A DNA stretch of 32,515 nucleotides from a virus. The stretch is from the IMG/VR virus record IMGVR_UViG_3300035698_029194, positions 1 to 32,515 of that record, one strand, 5' to 3'. This document shows, piece by piece, positions 3,217 through 32,515 of the stretch. The number at the start of each line of letters is the position of its first letter. Position 1 is the first letter of the stretch. The position numbers were made by a program, and so were the translations under genes. The notes below the pieces were generated by a model. It worked only from the letters and a program-made list of their open reading frames with translations. It was not told where the DNA came from and did no database searches.

Positions 3217-3602
3217 TGTCTTTAAACCCTAAAATAGATTTTGATTCATTTATTGAAGAATTTGGAACACGTGTTATTTGGAGAAAAAACACAGAAGAAT
3301 ATGATGCACAAACAGGTGAACCATTAAACAGTTTTACCGAGAGACCAATAAAAGCCATTATTTATAGTTTATCAAAAATGGAGAGAATAATGAATCCAGC
3401 AACCCTTGATGAACAAATAATAAATGCTAATTTTAAAGGAGATTCTGGCGTAGTAATAAACGATGAAATAAAGATTGGAACAGAAATATATAAGGTAAAG
3501 CGATTAATAGAGAATCCAACTATTTCTTTCCCAACAGAAAATATTAATAATACTACTGTCTTGAAAACATTCGAGTTAAGAAAAAGAGTAGAGAGTGCTT
3601 AA
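3216..3602 (+). CDS. Putative head-closure (stopper) protein
   Basis: Start ATG 3216 overlaps the previous stop (TAATG) and follows GGAGGAG. The 128 aa are beta-rich and match the pattern of SPP1 gp16/HK97-type head-tail adaptors: FGTRVIWRKNTEEYDAQTGE, IIYSLS, a central GDSGVVINDEIKIGTEIYKVKR strand pair (seen around residues 72-94), and a C-terminal strand. In siphoviruses this protein closes the head after packaging and binds the tail. Order (connector, stopper, gp10-like neck protein, terminator) supports the call. No domain is diagnostic on its own. Confidence 0.6.
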   Translation: MSLNPKIDFDSFIEEFGTRVIWRKNTEEYDAQTGEPLNSFTERPIKAIIYSLSKMERIMNPATLDEQIINANFKGDSGVVINDEIKIGTEIYKVKRLIENPTISFPTENINNTTVLKTFELRKRVESA

Positions 3603-3603
3603 A

Positions 3604-4995
3604 ATGGCTGATCCCGAAATAGAAAGGGGAATGAATAAGTGGCTAGAAAACTTTTTAGAAGAATTTTGTAAAGCTGTTGTTCTTGATGCGATGGAGAATG
3701 CTTCAGAGCACGGAGAATTAAGAAACTCTATAAAGTGGGAAAAAACAGGAGACTTGCAATACAGAATATATTCTGATCATCCTGCTGCAAAATTTATCGA
3801 GTATGGCACAAGAGCACACACAATAAGACCAAGGAATAAGAAATCTCTTGCCTTTAGTATTGGGGGAAGCGATGTCATGGTTAAGGGTGTTGAACATCCA
3901 GGATGTTTTTTAGATGGAAATGTTAATATAGAAACGATTGAAGGAAAGAAGAGAATATCGGAAATAAAAATCGGAGATTTAGTATTAACACATCTAAACA
4001 GATACAAAAAAGTAAAAAAAACATTAAGAGGTTCATTCAAAGAAAATGAAGAATATATAAGAATAGAAACACCTTTAGGTGGACATATTTCTGTAACACT
4101 TGAGCACAAGATTCTTTGTTTAGAAAATAATGAAAAAATTTGGAAAGACGCTAAGAATATAAAGAAAAATGATGTTTTGTTTATAAATATTTCTAGAAAA
4201 GAAAACAACAAAAAAAAAGTTAAATGTAAAATATGTGGTGTAAATTTTAAAAATCTTCAGACACACATCAGGGTTCATAATTTTACTAAAAAAATGTATC
4301 TTAAAAAATATCCCGACGATACGAAATATTTTGAAAGCAAAGAATCTTTTTCGAAAAAAGGTATTGCTGGTGCAAAAATTACATCAGAAATGTATAAGAA
4401 AGGGAAAATAAAAATATGGAATAAAGGATTGACTAAAGAAACAAGCATTAGTATTTTAAAAGGAACAATTAAAAGCAAAGAAACAATTAGAAGAAAAATA
4501 AAAAATGGGTGTTATTGGACTCAATTAGAGAAAGAAAGATATAAGAAAGCTATTGAAAAAACTAGAAAAAAAACAGTGGAACGAGCTCGTTTAGGCATAC
4601 ATAATTTTCAAGATCCCGAAGAACATAAAATTGCAATGAAAGCATTAGGTAAAAAACATAATGGTGGAACATATATTGAAATAAAAATGGAAAAGTATCT
4701 CAAAAAAATAAATAAAAAATTTGAGAAGCAATATCCTATAAAAAGAAAAGTAAAAACAAAGAATGGAAAAAACAGATATTTTTTTGTTGATTTTTTTATA
4801 CCTAAAGACAATTTGTTAATAGAGTGTGATGGTAAATATTGGCACAATTGGAAATCTGACAGAAAACGAGATAAAGAGATACTCTCGATTTTTCCCCACT
4901 ACAAAATAGCACATGTAACATTTGGTAAAAATATTAATTGGAAAATCTTTGATTTAAAAAGAATAAAAGAGGTGTCTTTGATTGAAAAAAAATAA
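3604..4995 (+). CDS. HK97 gp10-like neck protein N-part + N-intein + Vsr-like endonuclease
   Basis: Residues 1-100 are the N-extein, an HK97 gp10-type neck/tail-completion protein with the family motif IEYGTRAHTIRP and ending VKGVEHPG. The N-intein begins at Cys101 (3904): block A CFLDGNVNIET, then block B with VTLEHKILCL. From about residue 198 an endonuclease module follows: a C2H2-like finger (CKICG..HIRVH), NUMOD-like basic repeats (NKGLTKET), and a PD-(D/E)XK core with FVDFFIP and IECDGKYWH resembling Vsr/DUF559 nucleases. The ORF ends without a C-intein; that is encoded by the overlapping next ORF. ATG 3604 is preferred to GTG 3595 because it sits directly after the previous stop. The extein product after trans-splicing would be 122 aa, the normal gp10 size. 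Confidence 0.85.
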   Translation: MADPEIERGMNKWLENFLEEFCKAVVLDAMENASEHGELRNSIKWEKTGDLQYRIYSDHPAAKFIEYGTRAHTIRPRNKKSLAFSIGGSDVMVKGVEHPGCFLDGNVNIETIEGKKRISEIKIGDLVLTHLNRYKKVKKTLRGSFKENEEYIRIETPLGGHISVTLEHKILCLENNEKIWKDAKNIKKNDVLFINISRKENNKKKVKCKICGVNFKNLQTHIRVHNFTKKMYLKKYPDDTKYFESKESFSKKGIAGAKITSEMYKKGKIKIWNKGLTKETSISILKGTIKSKETIRRKIKNGCYWTQLEKERYKKAIEKTRKKTVERARLGIHNFQDPEEHKIAMKALGKKHNGGTYIEIKMEKYLKKINKKFEKQYPIKRKVKTKNGKNRYFFVDFFIPKDNLLIECDGKYWHNWKSDRKRDKEILSIFPHYKIAHVTFGKNINWKIFDLKRIKEVSLIEKK

Positions 4996-5119
4996 AATAA
5001 TACCAGTTTTTGTCGAAAAAATTGAAAAAAGAAAAATAAAGAAAAAGAGAGGAATACTTTATGATTTGGAAGTAGAAGATGACGGAAGTTATATCGCTGG
5101 AAATATTGTTGTACATAAT
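3904..5119 (+). mobile_element. Split intein with internal endonuclease (neck gene)
   Basis: The element runs from Cys1 of the N-intein to the terminal Asn of the C-intein, with Ser as the +1 nucleophile. Removing it joins HPG to SPPRPFM, which restores the conserved HPG-x-PRPFM motif of gp10 proteins. The split lies where inteins usually carry a homing endonuclease, and the endonuclease is fused to the N-half. Confidence 0.85.
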
Positions 5120-5188
5120 TCTCCTCCAAGACCATTCATGGAACCAAGTATTATTCTTAATTTACAGAGAAGAGAAAACAAACAATAA
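4982..5188 (+). CDS. C-intein + C-extein of the HK97 gp10-like neck protein
   Basis: TTG 4982 is the start, preceded by AGAGGTG (4968-4974) at 7 nt. It overlaps the end of the upstream ORF by 14 nt in the +1 frame. Residues 1-46 are a C-intein: block F LYDLEVEDDGSYIAGNIVVHN ends in the canonical His-Asn. Ser47 starts the C-extein SPPRPFMEPSI, the C-terminal motif of gp10 neck proteins. The two polypeptides would associate and splice in trans. An A8 run at the overlap (4985-4992) could alternatively allow slippage into one chain, but the SD argues for separate translation. Confidence 0.87.
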   Translation: MKKNKIIPVFVEKIEKRKIKKKRGILYDLEVEDDGSYIAGNIVVHNSPPRPFMEPSIILNLQRRENKQ

Positions 5189-12747: not shown

Positions 12748-13284
12748 ATGACAGAAGGTGTTTTTCCAAAATGTGATGGATGTTGTTTTTACGCAAGTGA
12801 AGCAAATATAGTTAATGTTGCAACCGAGACAGCACTAGAGAATGCAATGAATATTGCTAGTCTTCAGTTCTGCCAAACTGTTACAGACATTGATCATGAT
12901 TATTTGGTAGTAGATGTTATGTCTGATAATGGTGGATACAATAATACTATTTGTAATGCTGATTCAACCGCAGATTATAATGGTTCTGACTTAACAGGAG
13001 CTTATGAGAATACTGGACCAGCTTGTGATTGTGTTGTTACTGAAGACATTTGTTTTGATGGAGAAGTTGAGCAAGTATATTTAACAGCAGTGAATGCTGG
13101 AACAGGAACAATTCTTTATAATGTTGTGAATGCAACAGGTGGAGCAACTCTTTGCTCTGGACTAAGCTTGAATTGTCAATACTCTATGTCTTGTTGTGTA
13201 TGCTGTATCAGACTTGAATTTGCTTTTTGTACTGATGCTTTAAGCTGTTTGCGTAACTATGCTTTAGCGGTGGTAACAGTATGA
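12748..13284 (+). CDS. Cysteine-rich putative virion surface protein 1
   Basis: 178 residues with 16 Cys (~9%), including KCDGCC, ACDC and SCCVCC clusters. It has no signal peptide. The sequence otherwise reads like a soluble beta protein (DHDYLVVDVMSDNGGYNNT, TILYNVVNATGGATLC, NYALAVVT). It shares motifs and ends with the next gene, so the two are tandem paralogues. Position after the tail tip genes and its own late promoter suggest a structural, possibly receptor-binding role; Cys could bind metal or form disulphides. No known family recognised. Confidence 0.7.
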   Translation: MTEGVFPKCDGCCFYASEANIVNVATETALENAMNIASLQFCQTVTDIDHDYLVVDVMSDNGGYNNTICNADSTADYNGSDLTGAYENTGPACDCVVTEDICFDGEVEQVYLTAVNAGTGTILYNVVNATGGATLCSGLSLNCQYSMSCCVCCIRLEFAFCTDALSCLRNYALAVVTV

Positions 13285-14351
13285 CTGTTGAAAGTTGTTT
13301 TCCAAAAGATCCTTGCAACATATATTATGCTTCGGAATTTAATACAGCATACTATGTCGCAGAAAGTGGTTTGGAAACAGCAATGAATATTGCAGCACTT
13401 CAATAATCTGATAGTGTTAGTGATATAGACCACGACTATATGTTAGTGGATATTATGACAGATGCTACAGGATACAATAATACTGTTTGTGACACCGACA
13501 CTACTTCAAAATTTTGTGGAACTGCTTTAACAGGAAATTATAGGAATGCTTGTTGTAAAGCAAATGCTGTTGTTGGTTGTTTGGCTTATTGTTATGGATA
13601 TGTTTCTGGATGTACTGGAGGCTGGGTTATTTGTAAATCAGATTATGGTTTAAGAGTACATGTTTCCGAAGGAGGTTGTAATATGTCTGGGTATGCACAC
13701 GGTATTACTTGTATTGCTTCTGAAGATTTTGATGAAGCAAATGATTATCTTATTGAGTTTAAGATTTTGTGTTTCATTAATAGGTCTAGAGAAGGAAATG
13801 GTGGTGGTGACATCGCTTCTTTGCAAGTTTGTGGTTCTCATGATAATTATTCTTGTTGTATAACTGGAACCAATGACGTATTTGGTATTACTAATTGTTA
13901 TTGTTACAAAAAAGCCAGCACTAATTGTTGGGATTTTTATAAAAATGGGACTTGTCTTTGTCAAGTAACAATGAGTGCCTTTCCAAATATTATTTTTACT
14001 GGTTGCGGATATATTGAAAGTGGAACTCACTGTTCTAGGTCTGTTTATGCTTATGCTTGCATGAGTGATATTTGTGAACACTGTATTATTAGTTCAAAGG
14101 TAGTTACTGAAGATATTGATTTTGGAAGCGAAGTTTCTCAATTATATATTACTGATGAAGTTTGCGGAACAGGAACAACAACTTATAATGTTGTAAATCC
14201 TACTGGAGGAGCGTGCCTTTGCACTGGTTTAACAACAAAATGTAATTATGCTATGGATTGTTGCTTATGTTCTTTAAGATTTGAAATTGTTCAATGCGAT
14301 GATGATGTATCATGTGTAAAAAGTTATGCTATGGCTGTGGTTACAGCTTAA
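13281..14351 (+). pseudogene. Cysteine-rich putative virion surface protein 2, in-frame TAA
   Basis: ATG 13281 overlaps the previous stop and has GGTGGT upstream. The frame aligns with paralogue 1 (ETAMNIAALQ ... DIDHDYMLVDIMTD against ENAMNIASLQ ... DIDHDYLVVDVMSD), but codon 42 (13404-13406) is TAA where paralogue 1 has Phe. Beyond it the frame is open to 14351 with ~33 Cys in the downstream 303 codons. Relative to paralogue 1 there is a ~150-residue insertion (about 13560-14090) with CYGYVSGCTGGW and CYCYKKASTNCW. The end repeats YNVVNPTGGA and SYAMAVVTA. It is either a nonsense-broken gene, a sequence error or a readthrough product; ATG 13440 is an internal codon without an SD. Confidence 0.6.
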
Positions 14352-18344: not shown

Positions 18345-19775
18345 TTAAATATATTTCATAACATTCTTTTTTATTACCGCTTCGGATATTGCTTGTTTAT
18401 CATCCAGTGCCTGTAAAACTTTTTCCTCTATTGTATTTCTTGCAACAAGATCATAAACAAATACAGTATTCTTTTGCCCACTTCTGTGTGCACGACTAAG
18501 GGCTTGTTGTCTATCAGCGGGAACCCAAGGATTGTTAAGAAAAATAACGTGGTTAGCTTCTTGAAGATTCAAACCAACTCCTCCTGTCATTGTTTGTATA
18601 AGGAAAACTCTTTTGTTTGGATCCTCTTTAAAATACTTTAACTGATTTTCTCTATCCTTTATTTCTCCCCAAAGTCTTGAAAAATCAATATTTTCTTGTT
18701 CAAGCCTTCCAGCAAGATCCTTTAATGCTTTTGTAAAATCGCAGAACACAAGAATCTTATCGCTCCCTTGATTTATAATACTCTGTATTAGAGAAACACA
18801 TTCATCAGCTTTTGTGCTAGATTCTCCCATTGTTAATTGATCTCTCTGTATTTCAACATTCTTAGTGTTGCTCCACTTTAAACAAATTTCTCCATTACAT
18901 AAAACACGAAGCAAAACAAGTTCTCCCATGAAATTGTATTCCATGTCATTAGGATACAGTTTTGCCATATCCTTTTTTTCCTCAACAATGCTTTTTATTT
19001 TCTCATAAAACATTTTTTCTTTATTGTTAAGATCAATCCAAATACGCTCTTCAACAACTTTGGGAAGATCCTTTAAAACTTCTTCTCTTGTTCTTCTAAT
19101 ATAGAATGGCTTTATTTTTTCTTTTAATTGTTCAAGATTCTTGTGATCAACAACTTTCTCGAAAAAGTTTCCACCCATGTTAAATAATTTGGTAACCAAA
19201 AAATCCTCTTTAAATCTTTTGTATCCACCAAGAACAAGAGGATTAAGAAACTCAAAAATAGAGAACAAGTCTCCGACCATATTTCTTATTGGTGTTCCAG
19301 TCAAAATTATTTTTCTTTTTGTTTTCAACATTTTTGCATACTTTGATGTTTTACTAAAAGAATTTTTTATTCTTTGAACCTCGTCAAGAACAACAACATC
19401 CCATTTATGGTCAAAGGGGTGATCATCGAATCTCAATAACTCATAATTAATAATTTTTATTCTTTCTCTTCCTTTCCAAAGTTCTTCCCGTTTCTTTTTT
19501 GCCCCCTCAATTATTGCTGCACGCATGTGAGAAAACTTTTCTATTTCTTCAAGCCATTGCTTCTTTAAAGAGTTAGGACAAACAATTAAAACATGAGTTG
19601 CTTTACCTTTTTCTTTTAAAACATTTAATCCGGCGATAGTCATTATTGTATTATGCATGTATATATCATTACCAAGATAACTATGGTATTTTTCAACTTC
19701 TAAATCATAAACAAAAGCTTCAGAATCAATTTCTTCTATCGATACTATTTTTTCATTAGTAATTATCTTAGTCAT
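18345..19775 (-). CDS. C-intein + C-part of SNF2-type helicase
   Basis: The ATG at 19775 is preferred over GTG 19784 because AGGTG sits 7 nt before it; it overlaps the upstream ORF as ATGACTAA. Residues 1-42 are a C-intein ending VYDLEVEKYHSYLGNDIYMHN. Thr43 starts the C-extein TIMTIAGLNVL, the continuation of Walker A. SNF2 motifs follow: LDEVQRIKN (II), LTGTPIRN (III), FLIQTMTGGVGLNL (V), ALSRAHRSGQKN (VI). The joined helicase would be about 550 aa. A role in remodelling or branch migration at virus forks is likely. Confidence 0.88.
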   Translation of the reverse strand: MTKIITNEKIVSIEEIDSEAFVYDLEVEKYHSYLGNDIYMHNTIMTIAGLNVLKEKGKATHVLIVCPNSLKKQWLEEIEKFSHMRAAIIEGAKKKREELWKGRERIKIINYELLRFDDHPFDHKWDVVVLDEVQRIKNSFSKTSKYAKMLKTKRKIILTGTPIRNMVGDLFSIFEFLNPLVLGGYKRFKEDFLVTKLFNMGGNFFEKVVDHKNLEQLKEKIKPFYIRRTREEVLKDLPKVVEERIWIDLNNKEKMFYEKIKSIVEEKKDMAKLYPNDMEYNFMGELVLLRVLCNGEICLKWSNTKNVEIQRDQLTMGESSTKADECVSLIQSIINQGSDKILVFCDFTKALKDLAGRLEQENIDFSRLWGEIKDRENQLKYFKEDPNKRVFLIQTMTGGVGLNLQEANHVIFLNNPWVPADRQQALSRAHRSGQKNTVFVYDLVARNTIEEKVLQALDDKQAISEAVIKKNVMKYI

Positions 19776-20772
19776 GAATAGCACCTTTTATTAAGTTCTG
19801 TATTAGTTTAATATTCTTTTCTATTTCAATATTAGAAAAATAAAAAATTCTCCAACCTCTTTCTCTAAGAAAACTTATTTTTTTTGTATCTCTTGTACCT
19901 ACTTCTATACCAATTTTTCTTTTTTGTATACCAAAATCAATCTTATATCCTACAGGATATCTTTTCGGATTTTTAATTTTGTTTATTCTTGATGAAAAAT
20001 TTGTTTTTACACAACATTGATATTCAAAACCCAGAGGTTTAAAAATACTATTAGCTTTTTCCTCTGTTTTACTTATTATACCATTACCACCTTTACTATT
20101 TCCTTTTGATCCATCTAAAGGAAGTTTACCATATTTTTTAAGATTAGTTTTTCTCCACTTTTTTATGGCATTATTCTTCTTCATACCTTTTTTCGTTGCT
20201 ACACTTATTTTTTCTCTCAAATTATTTGATTTTTCCATACCATAGAATTCTAAATAACTTTTGCCTTTCTTAGTACTATCATGTGTCTTTGACCATTTTA
20301 TTCGAGATTTAGAAATATTTTTCCTATGTTCTATTGTAAATCTTTTTCCTTTCTTTGTCTTACTAATTTTATTTCTTCTTTCCTTTTCTTTCTTTTTTGT
20401 TTTTGCAACCCCACCCATAATTAGTCTAGAACCAAGAACAAAATCTCCGACAGACAATTTTGAAGATTCCACCCAATTATTTCTTGAAAACAATTTATGT
20501 TTTTTAGTTACAATTATTTCTTTTCCAGATTCAAATTTTATTTTTAGAATCTTTTCCTTTATTTTTTGTCTAAATAATCTTTTTACATTTCCTGTAACTA
20601 CGTTTCCTTTTGAATCTATAGACTCTATTTTTATTTGTTTTTTTGGTATTACCCAAATTTCTCCATTCTCCTCTCTTTCACCATTAAAATTTTCATCAAA
20701 TAATTCTTTTATTTGGATTTTCTTTTTCTCTCCTTTGTTACGGCATCTAATAATAGTACTCCCACTACAACA
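19650..20772 (-). mobile_element. Split intein with internal endonuclease (helicase gene)
   Basis: The element spans from the TGT of Cys1 (20772-20770) to the AAT of the terminal Asn (19652-19650). The +1 residue is Thr. Excision joins GVGK to TIMTIAG and so rebuilds Walker A. P-loop Lys/Thr is a known favoured intein site. The ORF break lies directly after the endonuclease domain. Confidence 0.86.
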
Positions 20773-21120
20773 TTTCCCAACTCCCATATCATGGAATAAT
20801 GCAAAAGAATCGTGATTAATTATTGCATTTGCTCCTTCTCTCTGAAAATCATAAAGGGGGAACTTTAAACCAAAATCACTTATTTGTTCTTTTGGTTTCA
20901 AAAACATTTCTGCATAACTATTATCCAAAATATAATCAATTCCCTTTTCTACAAGAATTGGAATAAAGTGTTCTTGCAAATCAGATAAACCTATTGTCCA
21001 CACTTGTTTTCTAGGATTCCATCTTCTATTGTCTGTGTATTCCTTAATGATGTGAACAATTTTTGGATCGTATGGGAAACGGATTGTTACCGCTCCTTCC
21101 TCATAACTTATTGAAATCAT
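19768..21120 (-). CDS. N-part of SNF2-type helicase + N-intein + endonuclease
   Basis: Residues 1-116 are the N-extein: an N-terminal beta domain, a Q-motif-like FPLYDFQREGANAI, and HDMGVGK (Walker A up to Lys). Intein block A starts at Cys117 (20772) as CCSGSTII; block B contains VTKKHKLFSRNNW. From about residue 230 comes a basic NUMOD-like region (RFTIEHRKNISKSR, LREKISVATKKG). Then a PD-(D/E)XK-type domain with KIDFGIQ and IGIEVGT, and an end (ERGWRIFYFS) reminiscent of Vsr/DUF559. It terminates before any C-intein, and the next ORF supplies one. Start ATG 21120 has TTGGTGATTAA and a TATA box upstream. Confidence 0.87.
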   Translation of the reverse strand: MISISYEEGAVTIRFPYDPKIVHIIKEYTDNRRWNPRKQVWTIGLSDLQEHFIPILVEKGIDYILDNSYAEMFLKPKEQISDFGLKFPLYDFQREGANAIINHDSFALFHDMGVGKCCSGSTIIRCRNKGEKKKIQIKELFDENFNGEREENGEIWVIPKKQIKIESIDSKGNVVTGNVKRLFRQKIKEKILKIKFESGKEIIVTKKHKLFSRNNWVESSKLSVGDFVLGSRLIMGGVAKTKKKEKERRNKISKTKKGKRFTIEHRKNISKSRIKWSKTHDSTKKGKSYLEFYGMEKSNNLREKISVATKKGMKKNNAIKKWRKTNLKKYGKLPLDGSKGNSKGGNGIISKTEEKANSIFKPLGFEYQCCVKTNFSSRINKIKNPKRYPVGYKIDFGIQKRKIGIEVGTRDTKKISFLRERGWRIFYFSNIEIEKNIKLIQNLIKGAIHD

Positions 21121-21167: not shown

Positions 21168-21815
21168 TTAGGTAAATACTTTTTTTAGTGCTTTACACTC
21201 CTTTTCATATAACCCTTTTACCTTAAACTTGTTCAAAGAAAGTGCGTTTTGCACCTCAATAAAGCTTGGATAGACCTCTTTTATCTTTTTAGCCCTAACA
21301 ATTGATATTCTTGGAACACAAGTTAGAACACTTAAATAAATATCTTCGCCAGTTTGTTGTCGCCTAAGAATCTCTTGCATAACATTTTTTCCATCATTTG
21401 TTTTCTCAATAATTTTTTTAATAATTTTTGCATATTGTTGAAGATTATCAACATGAAGTATTTTAACATTGTGTCTGACAGCAACACTTGCTAGCATCCC
21501 AAGTCGTTGCTCTAAAGTGAAGTGCTTCATTCCAGTAAAGTGAAGGTTTGCAAAACTACCATGAATAATTAAATACTTGTTATCATAATTATTATCCATG
21601 TCAATTAATTGTTCTCTCAAGTGTCCACTTCTCATACTTTGAACAAAATCACCAACCTCTTTCCTCTCAAAAACTATTGTCTTGTCCTTGTCTTCATACA
21701 AAGCATCTCCTATTTTTAGATTCTTTGTTTCACATGTTACACCAACTTTTTCAAAAATATTGAAAAGCTTTGGATGGTGAACAAATTCATTCTTGTCTAC
21801 TTGTAGATTTTCCAA
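21168..21815 (-). CDS. ERCC4/XPF-family nuclease
   Basis: The start is TTG 21815, with GAGAGGTG 6 nt upstream, overlapping the primase end by 19 nt. ERKEVGDF at residues 50-57 is the ERKxxxD catalytic motif of XPF/Mus81 nucleases. The C-terminus (YLSVLTCVPRISIVRAKKI onward) is a helix-hairpin-helix DNA-binding pair. No helicase domain is present, as in short archaeal/viral forms. It would cut branched DNA made during replication or recombination, beside primase, Cas4-like nuclease and SNF2 helicase. Confidence 0.83.
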   Translation of the reverse strand: MENLQVDKNEFVHHPKLFNIFEKVGVTCETKNLKIGDALYEDKDKTIVFERKEVGDFVQSMRSGHLREQLIDMDNNYDNKYLIIHGSFANLHFTGMKHFTLEQRLGMLASVAVRHNVKILHVDNLQQYAKIIKKIIEKTNDGKNVMQEILRRQQTGEDIYLSVLTCVPRISIVRAKKIKEVYPSFIEVQNALSLNKFKVKGLYEKECKALKKVFT

Positions 21816-31673: not shown

Positions 31674-31802
31674 TTACCACCACTCATGCTCCACAACTTT
31701 TTTTCCGTCTTCTCCAATTTTTTTGAAGCAAGTTGAGCCATACCCACGATCAACACTAACTGGATCAGTTAGTTTTCTTTTGCATCTTAAACATTTAGTC
31801 AT
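31674..31802 (-). CDS. DUF6011-like zinc-binding micro-protein, 42 aa
   Basis: ATG 31802 overlaps the endonuclease stop (ATGACTAA). The 42 residues hold CLRCKRKLTDPVSVDRGYGS and TCFKKI, the DUF6011 pattern 'C..CgrpLtdp.S...G.Gp.C'. Three Cys (4, 7, 25) can bind zinc, perhaps with His39. It ends EWW, where the Trp codons form the SD of the next gene. Such proteins are common in tailed viruses; function unknown. Confidence 0.75.
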   Translation of the reverse strand: MTKCLRCKRKLTDPVSVDRGYGSTCFKKIGEDGKKVVEHEWW

Positions 31803-32515
31803 TCAATTCACCATTTAAAAATTCTTGTTCATTAATTCTAACAAAATTACAATCAAGTTCTTCTGTTATCTCTTGTTGTCTTATTATATCTTTTTTTATA
31901 AGTTTATTACGTGATGTATAGTGATGAGATTCATCTACTTCATACGCAGTATTAGTTGTTTTACAATATCCATCTAAAAAATATCCACAAATACGATATT
32001 GTCTTTCTATTTTTATTTTGATTTTTTTCTCTATGTTATCAAGTATTTGTTTTTCATTCTTTCCTATTGTTCCCCAAAATAATATTCCGTGTTTTATATT
32101 ATAATTAATTTTTGCTTCTCTAAGTTTTCTTCTGTGGGTTTTTGAAAGAGGTCTTCCTGAACGTGATATTGACATATTCTTTCTAGCTTCCTTACCCATC
32201 TTTTTTCCTTTATGTGCTTCACTTAATTTTCTTCTAGTTTCTTTAGAAAATTTTCTTCCTTTCATGGCTAAAGACATTCTCCTTCTTCCTTCTTTTGAAA
32301 TCTTTCTTCCTTTACTAGCCCGACTTATTTTCCTTTTTGTTTCTTCTGAATGTTTTTTCCCTAACCGATAATTTCTCTTTTTAATTCTTGTTTCTTCTGA
32401 ACACACTCTATTGGTGTTACTCAAAATAAGTGCCTTTCTTCGTTCTTCTGTAAAAGCCAATCTCATTTTTCTTTTTGTTTCTTCTGAATGTTTTTTTCCT
32501 TTTTGTGACAAACTC
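31795..32515 (-). CDS. NUMOD3-repeat Vsr-like homing endonuclease (N-terminus outside window)
   Basis: The frame is open past the right edge, so the N-terminus is missing. About seven tandem NUMOD3-type units (e.g. GKKHSEETKRKM, GKKHSEETKRKI, KGRKFSKETRRKL, SGRPLSKTHRRKL), each 16-20 residues, form an extended DNA-reading array. The C-terminal nuclease has RQYRICGYFLDGYC and TAYEVDESHHY, an E-D-x-H-type Vsr-like active site, then CNFVRINEQEF. No intein block is seen, and the next ORF is not a C-intein. It may be free-standing, intron-borne, or the end of another N-intein fusion. Confidence 0.78.
   Translation of the reverse strand, partial: SLSQKGKKHSEETKRKMRLAFTEERRKALILSNTNRVCSEETRIKKRNYRLGKKHSEETKRKISRASKGRKISKEGRRRMSLAMKGRKFSKETRRKLSEAHKGKKMGKEARKNMSISRSGRPLSKTHRRKLREAKINYNIKHGILFWGTIGKNEKQILDNIEKKIKIKIERQYRICGYFLDGYCKTTNTAYEVDESHHYTSRNKLIKKDIIRQQEITEELDCNFVRINEQEFLNGELND

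What the first reader, a model, noticed from the sequence alone, without database searches (positions are those of the whole stretch)
18345..21120. Second split intein with the same architecture, inside Walker A of an SNF2 helicase
The helicase is cut exactly between Lys and Thr of GVGK/TIMT. Again the first ORF carries N-intein plus a PD-(D/E)XK nuclease, and the second has its own SD and encodes C-intein plus C-extein. The ATPase cannot work until splicing occurs, so helicase activity depends on both pieces meeting. Two such elements in one genome, in unrelated genes, suggest an active mobile class.
Basis: partly seen in the sequence, partly recalled or inferred. Interest (0 to 1): 0.92.

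Follow-up and report, generated by a model that had tools for sequence, protein, structure and literature searches.

The report
Split intein with nuclease in helicase
An uncultivated virus makes one of its helicases in two pieces that must be stitched together by a split intein whose first half also carries a (probably worn-out) homing nuclease; this is a new arrangement of a known kind of element rather than a new kind.

Summary
On the minus strand an SNF2 helicase is cut between Lys and Thr of Walker A (DMGVGK/TIMT). ORF 1 (21120-19768) is N-extein, intein N-half, linker and a C-terminal PD-(D/E)XK-like domain. ORF 2 (ATG 19775 to 18345) overlaps ORF 1 by 8 nt, has its own SD, and encodes a 42-residue intein C-half plus C-extein. 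All class 1 splicing residues are present, both halves complete one Hint fold in a model, and the joined extein matches intact SNF2 proteins. A gp10-like neck gene (3595-5188) has the same layout. Best reading: a natural trans-splicing intein, a variant of the 'fractured gene' arrangement in which the Vsr/DUF559-like homing nuclease is fused to the N-half instead of free-standing. Corrections: the site is an intein hotspot (76 contigs, 59 distinct inteins, all continuous, mostly class 3-like with LAGLIDADG motifs); this one is split and class 1, nearest to bacterial SNF2 inteins. The two window inteins are not detectably related, so one shared 'mobile class' is not shown. The SNF2 nuclease lacks the segment with the probable catalytic His, so it may no longer home. 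Trans-splicing is inferred, not tested. By-product: related nucleases lie out of frame inside continuous phage inteins.

The parts
20773..21120 (-). SNF2 helicase N-extein, residues 1-116, ending in Walker A ...DMGVGK
20425..20772 (-). intein N-half (C1, block B TxxH in VTKKH), about 116 residues
   Evidence: Pfam Intein_splicing 38.1 bits; predicted Hint fold; homologous to bacterial SNF2 inteins L176/L177
20098..20424 (-). basic, partly NUMOD3-like linker between intein N-half and nuclease core (assigned by eye)
   Evidence: low-confidence helices
19771..20097 (-). PD-(D/E)XK-like (Vsr/DUF559-like) domain; conserved D and E kept, DGxSH segment missing
19768..19775 (-). overlap ATGACTAA: start of C-half and stop of N-half; C-half in +1 frame
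19781..19788 (-). Shine-Dalgarno AAAGGTGC, 5 nt before ATG
19650..19775 (-). intein C-half, 42 residues, ...VYDLEVEKYHSYLGNDIYMHN
   Evidence: Hint fold completed in model
18345..19649 (-). SNF2 helicase C-extein from TIMT (+1 Thr) to stop
   Evidence: SNF2-rel_dom 1e-42, Helicase_C 8e-18
3595..3903 (+). companion element: HK97-gp10-like neck protein N-extein, ending ...GVEHPG
   Evidence: HK97-gp10_like 28.4 bits; intact relative HPGTRARPF in Gordonia phage Soos
3904..4191 (+). companion intein N-half (C1, VTLEH)
4192..4992 (+). companion nuclease part: CxxC..H..H zinc-finger-like module and Vsr/DUF559-like domain with VDF...IECDGKYWH...D
4982..5188 (+). companion C-half: TTG start, 46-residue intein C-half (...VVHN), C-extein SPPRPFMEPS...; SD AGAGGTGT upstream

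Best explanation
This is a naturally split (trans-splicing) class 1 intein in the Walker A motif of a viral SNF2 helicase. One mRNA is translated as two overlapping ORFs. The ribosome ends the first (N-extein, intein N-half, nuclease domain) at TAA and starts the second (intein C-half, C-extein) at the overlapping ATG, helped by an SD. The halves associate into one Hint fold and splice GVGK to TIMT, which restores Walker A and joins the two parts of the ATPase. The nuclease domain, attached to the excised N-half, belongs to the Vsr/DUF559-like type of phage homing nucleases and probably once drove homing into intein-free alleles; in this gene it is probably impaired. Shown from sequence: the architecture, overlap, SD, intact splicing residues, exact extein fit, homology of the N-half to continuous bacterial inteins at the same site, modelled Hint complementation. 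Inferred: expression, trans-splicing, past homing, nuclease impairment.
For: Both halves match Pfam Intein_splicing in complementary profile ranges (7-119 and 118-155). C1, TxxH, block F D/H, HN and +1 Thr are present. The joined extein fits intact SNF2 across the junction. Bacterial SNF2 inteins at the same K/T site are homologous (N-half E 2e-18 and 2e-14; C-half phmmer E 2e-4 to 2e-3). The split lies where LAGLIDADG domains sit in relatives. A model of the notional fused intein gives one Hint fold from residues 1-116 and 335-374 (pLDDT about 80-90), Z 22.0 to TvoVMA (154 aligned, rmsd 1.9) and Z 17.4 to gp41-1. SD before the C-half in both elements; the two SD strengths together are unlikely by chance (0.065 x 0.009, if independent). 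Two unrelated inteins share the same break (stop-start overlap, +1 frame), which argues against two sequencing errors.
Against: No second virus with the same split helicase was found, so conservation of the split cannot be shown. SD strength for SNF2 alone is only moderate. The modelled protein was joined artificially, and its alignment was shallow (7 rows) and contained continuous inteins. No expression or splicing data. The nuclease fold has modest confidence (pLDDT about 54-76).
Confidence: 0.82

Rival explanations
1. One continuous intein made through +1 recoding (programmed frameshift) at the overlap; the C-half is not a separate chain.
For: Reading GACT as one step gives an open 374-residue intein without stops. 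Both elements need the same +1 shift.
Against: No recognisable slippery site at the SNF2 overlap. The SD is 5 nt from an ATG, a spacing suited to initiation; the SD strengths match other gene starts of this virus.
Confidence: 0.07
2. Assembly or sequencing error, or a recent frameshift, in an ordinary continuous nuclease-bearing intein.
For: All other inteins found at this site are continuous (59 distinct; 64 of 66 matches continuous, the other two cut by a contig end). Broken inteins do occur: L110 has a second intein with an in-frame TAG. The neck overlap contains an A8 run.
Against: Two independent events in one contig, each placing a start codon with an SD in the overlap at the canonical split point, would be needed. 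The SNF2 overlap has no homopolymer longer than A4. The helicase and the neck protein would lose their ends.
Confidence: 0.09
3. The split gene is a decayed pseudogene: the virus does without this helicase and the halves never join.
For: The nuclease lacks a conserved segment.
Against: Both exteins are open over full length with intact helicase motifs, and all splicing residues are kept; the only lesion seen is in the nuclease.
Confidence: 0.05

Closest known systems
Fractured genes with split inteins gp41-1, gp41-8, NrdJ-1, IMPDH-1 and EDxHD/Vsr-like homing endonucleases (Dassa et al. 2009, doi 10.1093/nar/gkp095; known here from citations in PMC12350094, PMC6892783, PMC10448857 and memory, text not held)
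   Same: Split intein in a DNA-metabolism gene of a virus, adjacent halves, Vsr-like nuclease encoded between the halves.
   Different: There, from memory, the nuclease is a free-standing ORF between the halves; here it is fused in frame to the intein N-half and the C-half ORF overlaps its stop codon. Different gene and insertion site.
Split PolB intein with an HNH nuclease ORF in Pseudomonas phage MIJ3 (PMC6892783)
   Same: Phage split intein with a nuclease between the halves.
   Different: HNH nuclease in its own ORF (orf154) between orf153 and orf155; PolB, not SNF2.
Continuous inteins at the same SNF2 Walker A K/T site in phages (L107, L116, L120, L079, L004 and others)
   Same: Identical insertion site, same extein family.
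   Different: Single ORF, LAGLIDADG motifs, and 55 of 59 carry a class 3-like W/C/T signature by regular expression; the window intein does not.
Bacterial SNF2 inteins in an Anaerolinea MAG (L176), Actinomadura sp. DC4 (L177) and viral contig L154
   Same: Same site, homologous N-half (34%, 28%, 26%), C1 and HN/T.
   Different: Continuous; L177 is a 169-residue mini-intein, L154 carries LAGLIDADG-like sequence, none has a Vsr-like nuclease.

Membership tests
Intein (class 1) | N-terminal nucleophile C/S, block B TxxH, C-terminal HN, +1 C/S/T | tested here: met
   C1, VTKKH, YMHN, +1 Thr read from sequence; Pfam Intein_splicing over cut-off for the N-half
Intein (class 1) | Hint (horseshoe) fold | tested here: met
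   Model of the notional fused intein: Z 22.0 to 4o1s, 154 aligned, rmsd 1.9; by prediction only
Naturally split intein | Halves encoded by separate ORFs, each fused to one extein half | tested here: met
   ORFs 21120-19768 and 19775-18345 with SD
Naturally split intein | Protein trans-splicing of the two chains | not testable with these tools
   needs co-expression or proteomics
Fractured gene arrangement (Dassa 2009) | Free-standing homing endonuclease ORF between the intein halves | tested here: not met
   The nuclease is in frame with the N-half with no stop between them; internal starts were not excluded
EDxHD/Vsr-like homing endonuclease | Vsr/DUF559-like PD-(D/E)XK core | tested here: met
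   phmmer 2.3e-5 to 3.9e-5 to ORFs (L122, L018, L019) of which L122 and L018 score 46-48 bits for DUF559 (cut-off 20.6); direct Pfam score below cut-off (15.6)
EDxHD/Vsr-like homing endonuclease | Catalytic His and the D after it in the DGxxH segment | tested here: not met
   SNF2 domain lacks the DGxSH segment that L122, L081, L018 and the neck nuclease have
EDxHD/Vsr-like homing endonuclease | Cleavage of the intein-free allele | not testable with these tools
   needs an in vitro cleavage assay

The most novel reading that the evidence does not exclude
Split inteins with the homing nuclease fused to the N-half and a separately translated C-half are a distinct, recurrent architecture in a virus lineage, arising repeatedly at the nuclease insertion point so that nuclease and splicing halves are co-released, and helicase and virion assembly both depend on trans-splicing.
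Probability: 0.3. Interest if true: 0.65.

Novelty: new variant of a known kind. Interest (0 to 1): 0.55.

Why it matters
Split inteins are widely used tools, and how a continuous nuclease-bearing intein becomes split is open. Here the break lies directly after the nuclease, at the start of the C-half, twice in one virus in unrelated genes, with an SD and stop-start overlap each time. That is what an early stage of splitting should look like, before the nuclease becomes free-standing. The same helicase site holds dozens of continuous inteins for comparison, so steps can be tested directly. The two pairs are also candidates for orthogonal splicing tools.

Tried and rejected
Queries with the C-half, N-half and PolB found no relatives in viral contigs; the N-half found none in phages at E 0.01; the element has no near match in plasmids. 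Pattern YDxEVx..HNTI found only continuous inteins at other sites. MT837719 (H1), which seemed to match from residue 5, is an uninterrupted SNF2. Intron rather than intein: no Rfam family over the window and the intein blocks are clear. Common origin of the two split inteins: no BLASTP support, though very remote homology of Hint folds is certain. Derivation by a single shift from the nested-nuclease layout (L018, L081, L122): frames do not fit (nuclease is +1 to the intein there, the C-half is +1 to the nuclease here). The neck half folded without an alignment gave a useless model (pLDDT 36). Fold search gave mainly Hint matches, so the nuclease core was not tested on its own by structure.

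Full report
What is there. The window is a 32.5 kb linear virus record with a tail/neck region on the plus strand and replication genes on the minus strand (PolB, UDG, ERCC4 nuclease, PD-(D/E)XK nuclease, SNF2). The SNF2 gene consists of two ORFs. ORF 1, 21120-19768, 450 aa: N-extein residues 1-116 ending in DMGVGK, then CCSGSTII..., a Pfam Intein_splicing match over cut-off (38.1 vs 35.8 bits, profile 7-119), a basic linker and a C-terminal nuclease-like domain. ORF 2 starts at ATG 19775, ends at 18345, begins with 42 residues that match the end of the same Pfam profile (118-155) and ends this part in YMHN, then TIMTIAGL and the rest of an SNF2 ATPase. The ORFs overlap in ATGACTAA; ORF 2 is in the +1 frame.

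Is the cut exact? Joining residue 116 to the Thr after HN gives INHDSFALFHDMGVGKTIMTIAGLNVL. It aligns without a gap over residues 112-121 to 89 of 97 SNF2 proteins among fetched loci, with G.GK[TS] in 76; intact relatives read LADDMGLGKT. The companion element does the same in a gp10-like protein: GVEHPG/SPPRPFMEP against HPGTRARPFLR of Gordonia phage Soos.

Is it really split? Duplex energy with the anti-SD: median -6.6 kcal/mol for 31 start codons of this virus; -6.2 for the SNF2 C-half ATG (6.5% of 843 random start codons do as well); -9.6 for the neck C-half TTG (0.9%). Both C-halves overlap the stop of the N-half ORF. Two errors or decay events with these properties in one contig are unlikely. 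A frameshifted single chain cannot be excluded by sequence.

Do the halves make one intein? A notional fused intein (reading GACT as one step) was folded with relatives. Residues 1-116 and 335-374 form one Hint domain with pLDDT about 80-90; best matches are inteins (2cw7 Z 23.0, 157 aligned, rmsd 2.4; TvoVMA 4o1s Z 22.0, 154 aligned, rmsd 1.9; split inteins gp41-1 6qaz Z 17.4, NpuDnaE 4kl5 Z 18.1). All class 1 residues are present.

The insertion site is a hotspot. Three scans for the Walker A junctions in IMG/VR, together with one annotated phage genome and the genome scan, gave 76 contigs with 59 distinct inteins at exactly this K/T site, all in one ORF; in the last scan 64 of 66 helicase matches are continuous and the other two are cut by a contig end. 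55 of 59 have a Cys in block F and Thr before HN, i.e. look class 3, many without Cys1 (regular expressions only). Many more phage SNF2 genes have no intein. A genome scan found two bacterial inteins at the site homologous to the window N-half: Anaerolinea MAG (34%, 2e-18) and Actinomadura (28%, 2e-14), both continuous, the latter a mini-intein of 169 aa; viral contig L154 is similar (BLASTP 1e-12). So the window intein belongs with these class 1 inteins and entered the site separately from the common phage class 3-like ones (inference). It is the only split one seen.

The nuclease. Pfam gives only a sub-threshold DUF559 match (0.015-0.054). phmmer against the fetched loci links it to ORFs in L122, L018 and L019 (2e-5 to 4e-5) and weakly L081 (0.02); L122, L018 and L081 are DUF559 at 46-50 bits. 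The alignment keeps the Asp and Glu of the core but lacks the DGxSH segment, present in these relatives and, as DGKYWH, in the neck nuclease. I infer that the SNF2 nuclease has lost or weakened activity while the neck one may be active.

One mobile class? The two elements share layout but no detectable sequence similarity (BLASTP E >= 11). The shared layout is more simply explained by the split arising at the nuclease insertion point in two separate inteins, or by remote common descent that cannot be shown here.

Known relatives. Dassa et al. 2009 described 'fractured genes' with split inteins and EDxHD/Vsr-like nucleases (cited in PMC12350094, PMC6892783, PMC10448857; the paper was not held and its details are from memory). 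MIJ3 has a split PolB intein with a separate HNH ORF (PMC6892783). The window differs by the in-frame fusion of the nuclease to the N-half and the overlapping C-half ORF. Hence: new variant of a known kind.

By-product. In L018/L019 (Vibrio phages), L081 and L122 the related nuclease lies in the +1 frame inside a continuous intein at helicase motif II. Between L018 and L019, 35 of 42 differences fall in nuclease codon position 3; 7 residues differ in the nuclease frame and 35 in the intein frame: the nested frame is the one under constraint. Out-of-frame HNH insertions are known (ShiLan, PMC11855218), but that report finds no splicing domain; here both frames score over Pfam cut-offs for L018 and L122.

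Noticed in passing
L018:3548-4315 inside intein L018:3274-4341 (also L019); L081:3327-4004 inside L081:3053-4015; L122:2285-3103 inside L122:2023-3156: Vsr/DUF559-like nucleases with Cys-rich N-termini are encoded in the +1 frame nested inside continuous inteins at helicase motif II; the nuclease frame is the conserved one (7 vs 35 residue changes between L018 and L019). Dual coding reaches into the intein C-end.
   Followed up: partly
L110:10440-10442 (minus strand): A viral SNF2 gene with a continuous Walker A intein has a second LAGLIDADG-like intein at motif VI (AEDR/C...HN/CYRIGQ) interrupted by an in-frame TAG: recent nonsense mutation, or TAG recoding.
   Followed up: partly
SNF2 genes of IMG/VR contigs, e.g. 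L079, L180, L203, L228, L245: Many same-site phage inteins start with A, G, F, E, M, Q or V and have block F Cys and Thr before HN: a large set of probable class 3 inteins in SNF2.
   Followed up: partly
window 31795-32514 (minus): ORF cut by the contig end: four NUMOD3 motifs plus a DUF559/MTES_1575-like nuclease, probably another homing endonuclease; no intein match next to it.
   Followed up: partly
window 12748-14351: Two tandem proteins unusually rich in Cys with related C-terminal parts, near the tail genes; no function assigned.
   Followed up: no
window 21168-21815: ERCC4-type nuclease with helix-hairpin-helix-like tail next to SNF2, which suggests an archaeal host; not tested.
   Followed up: no
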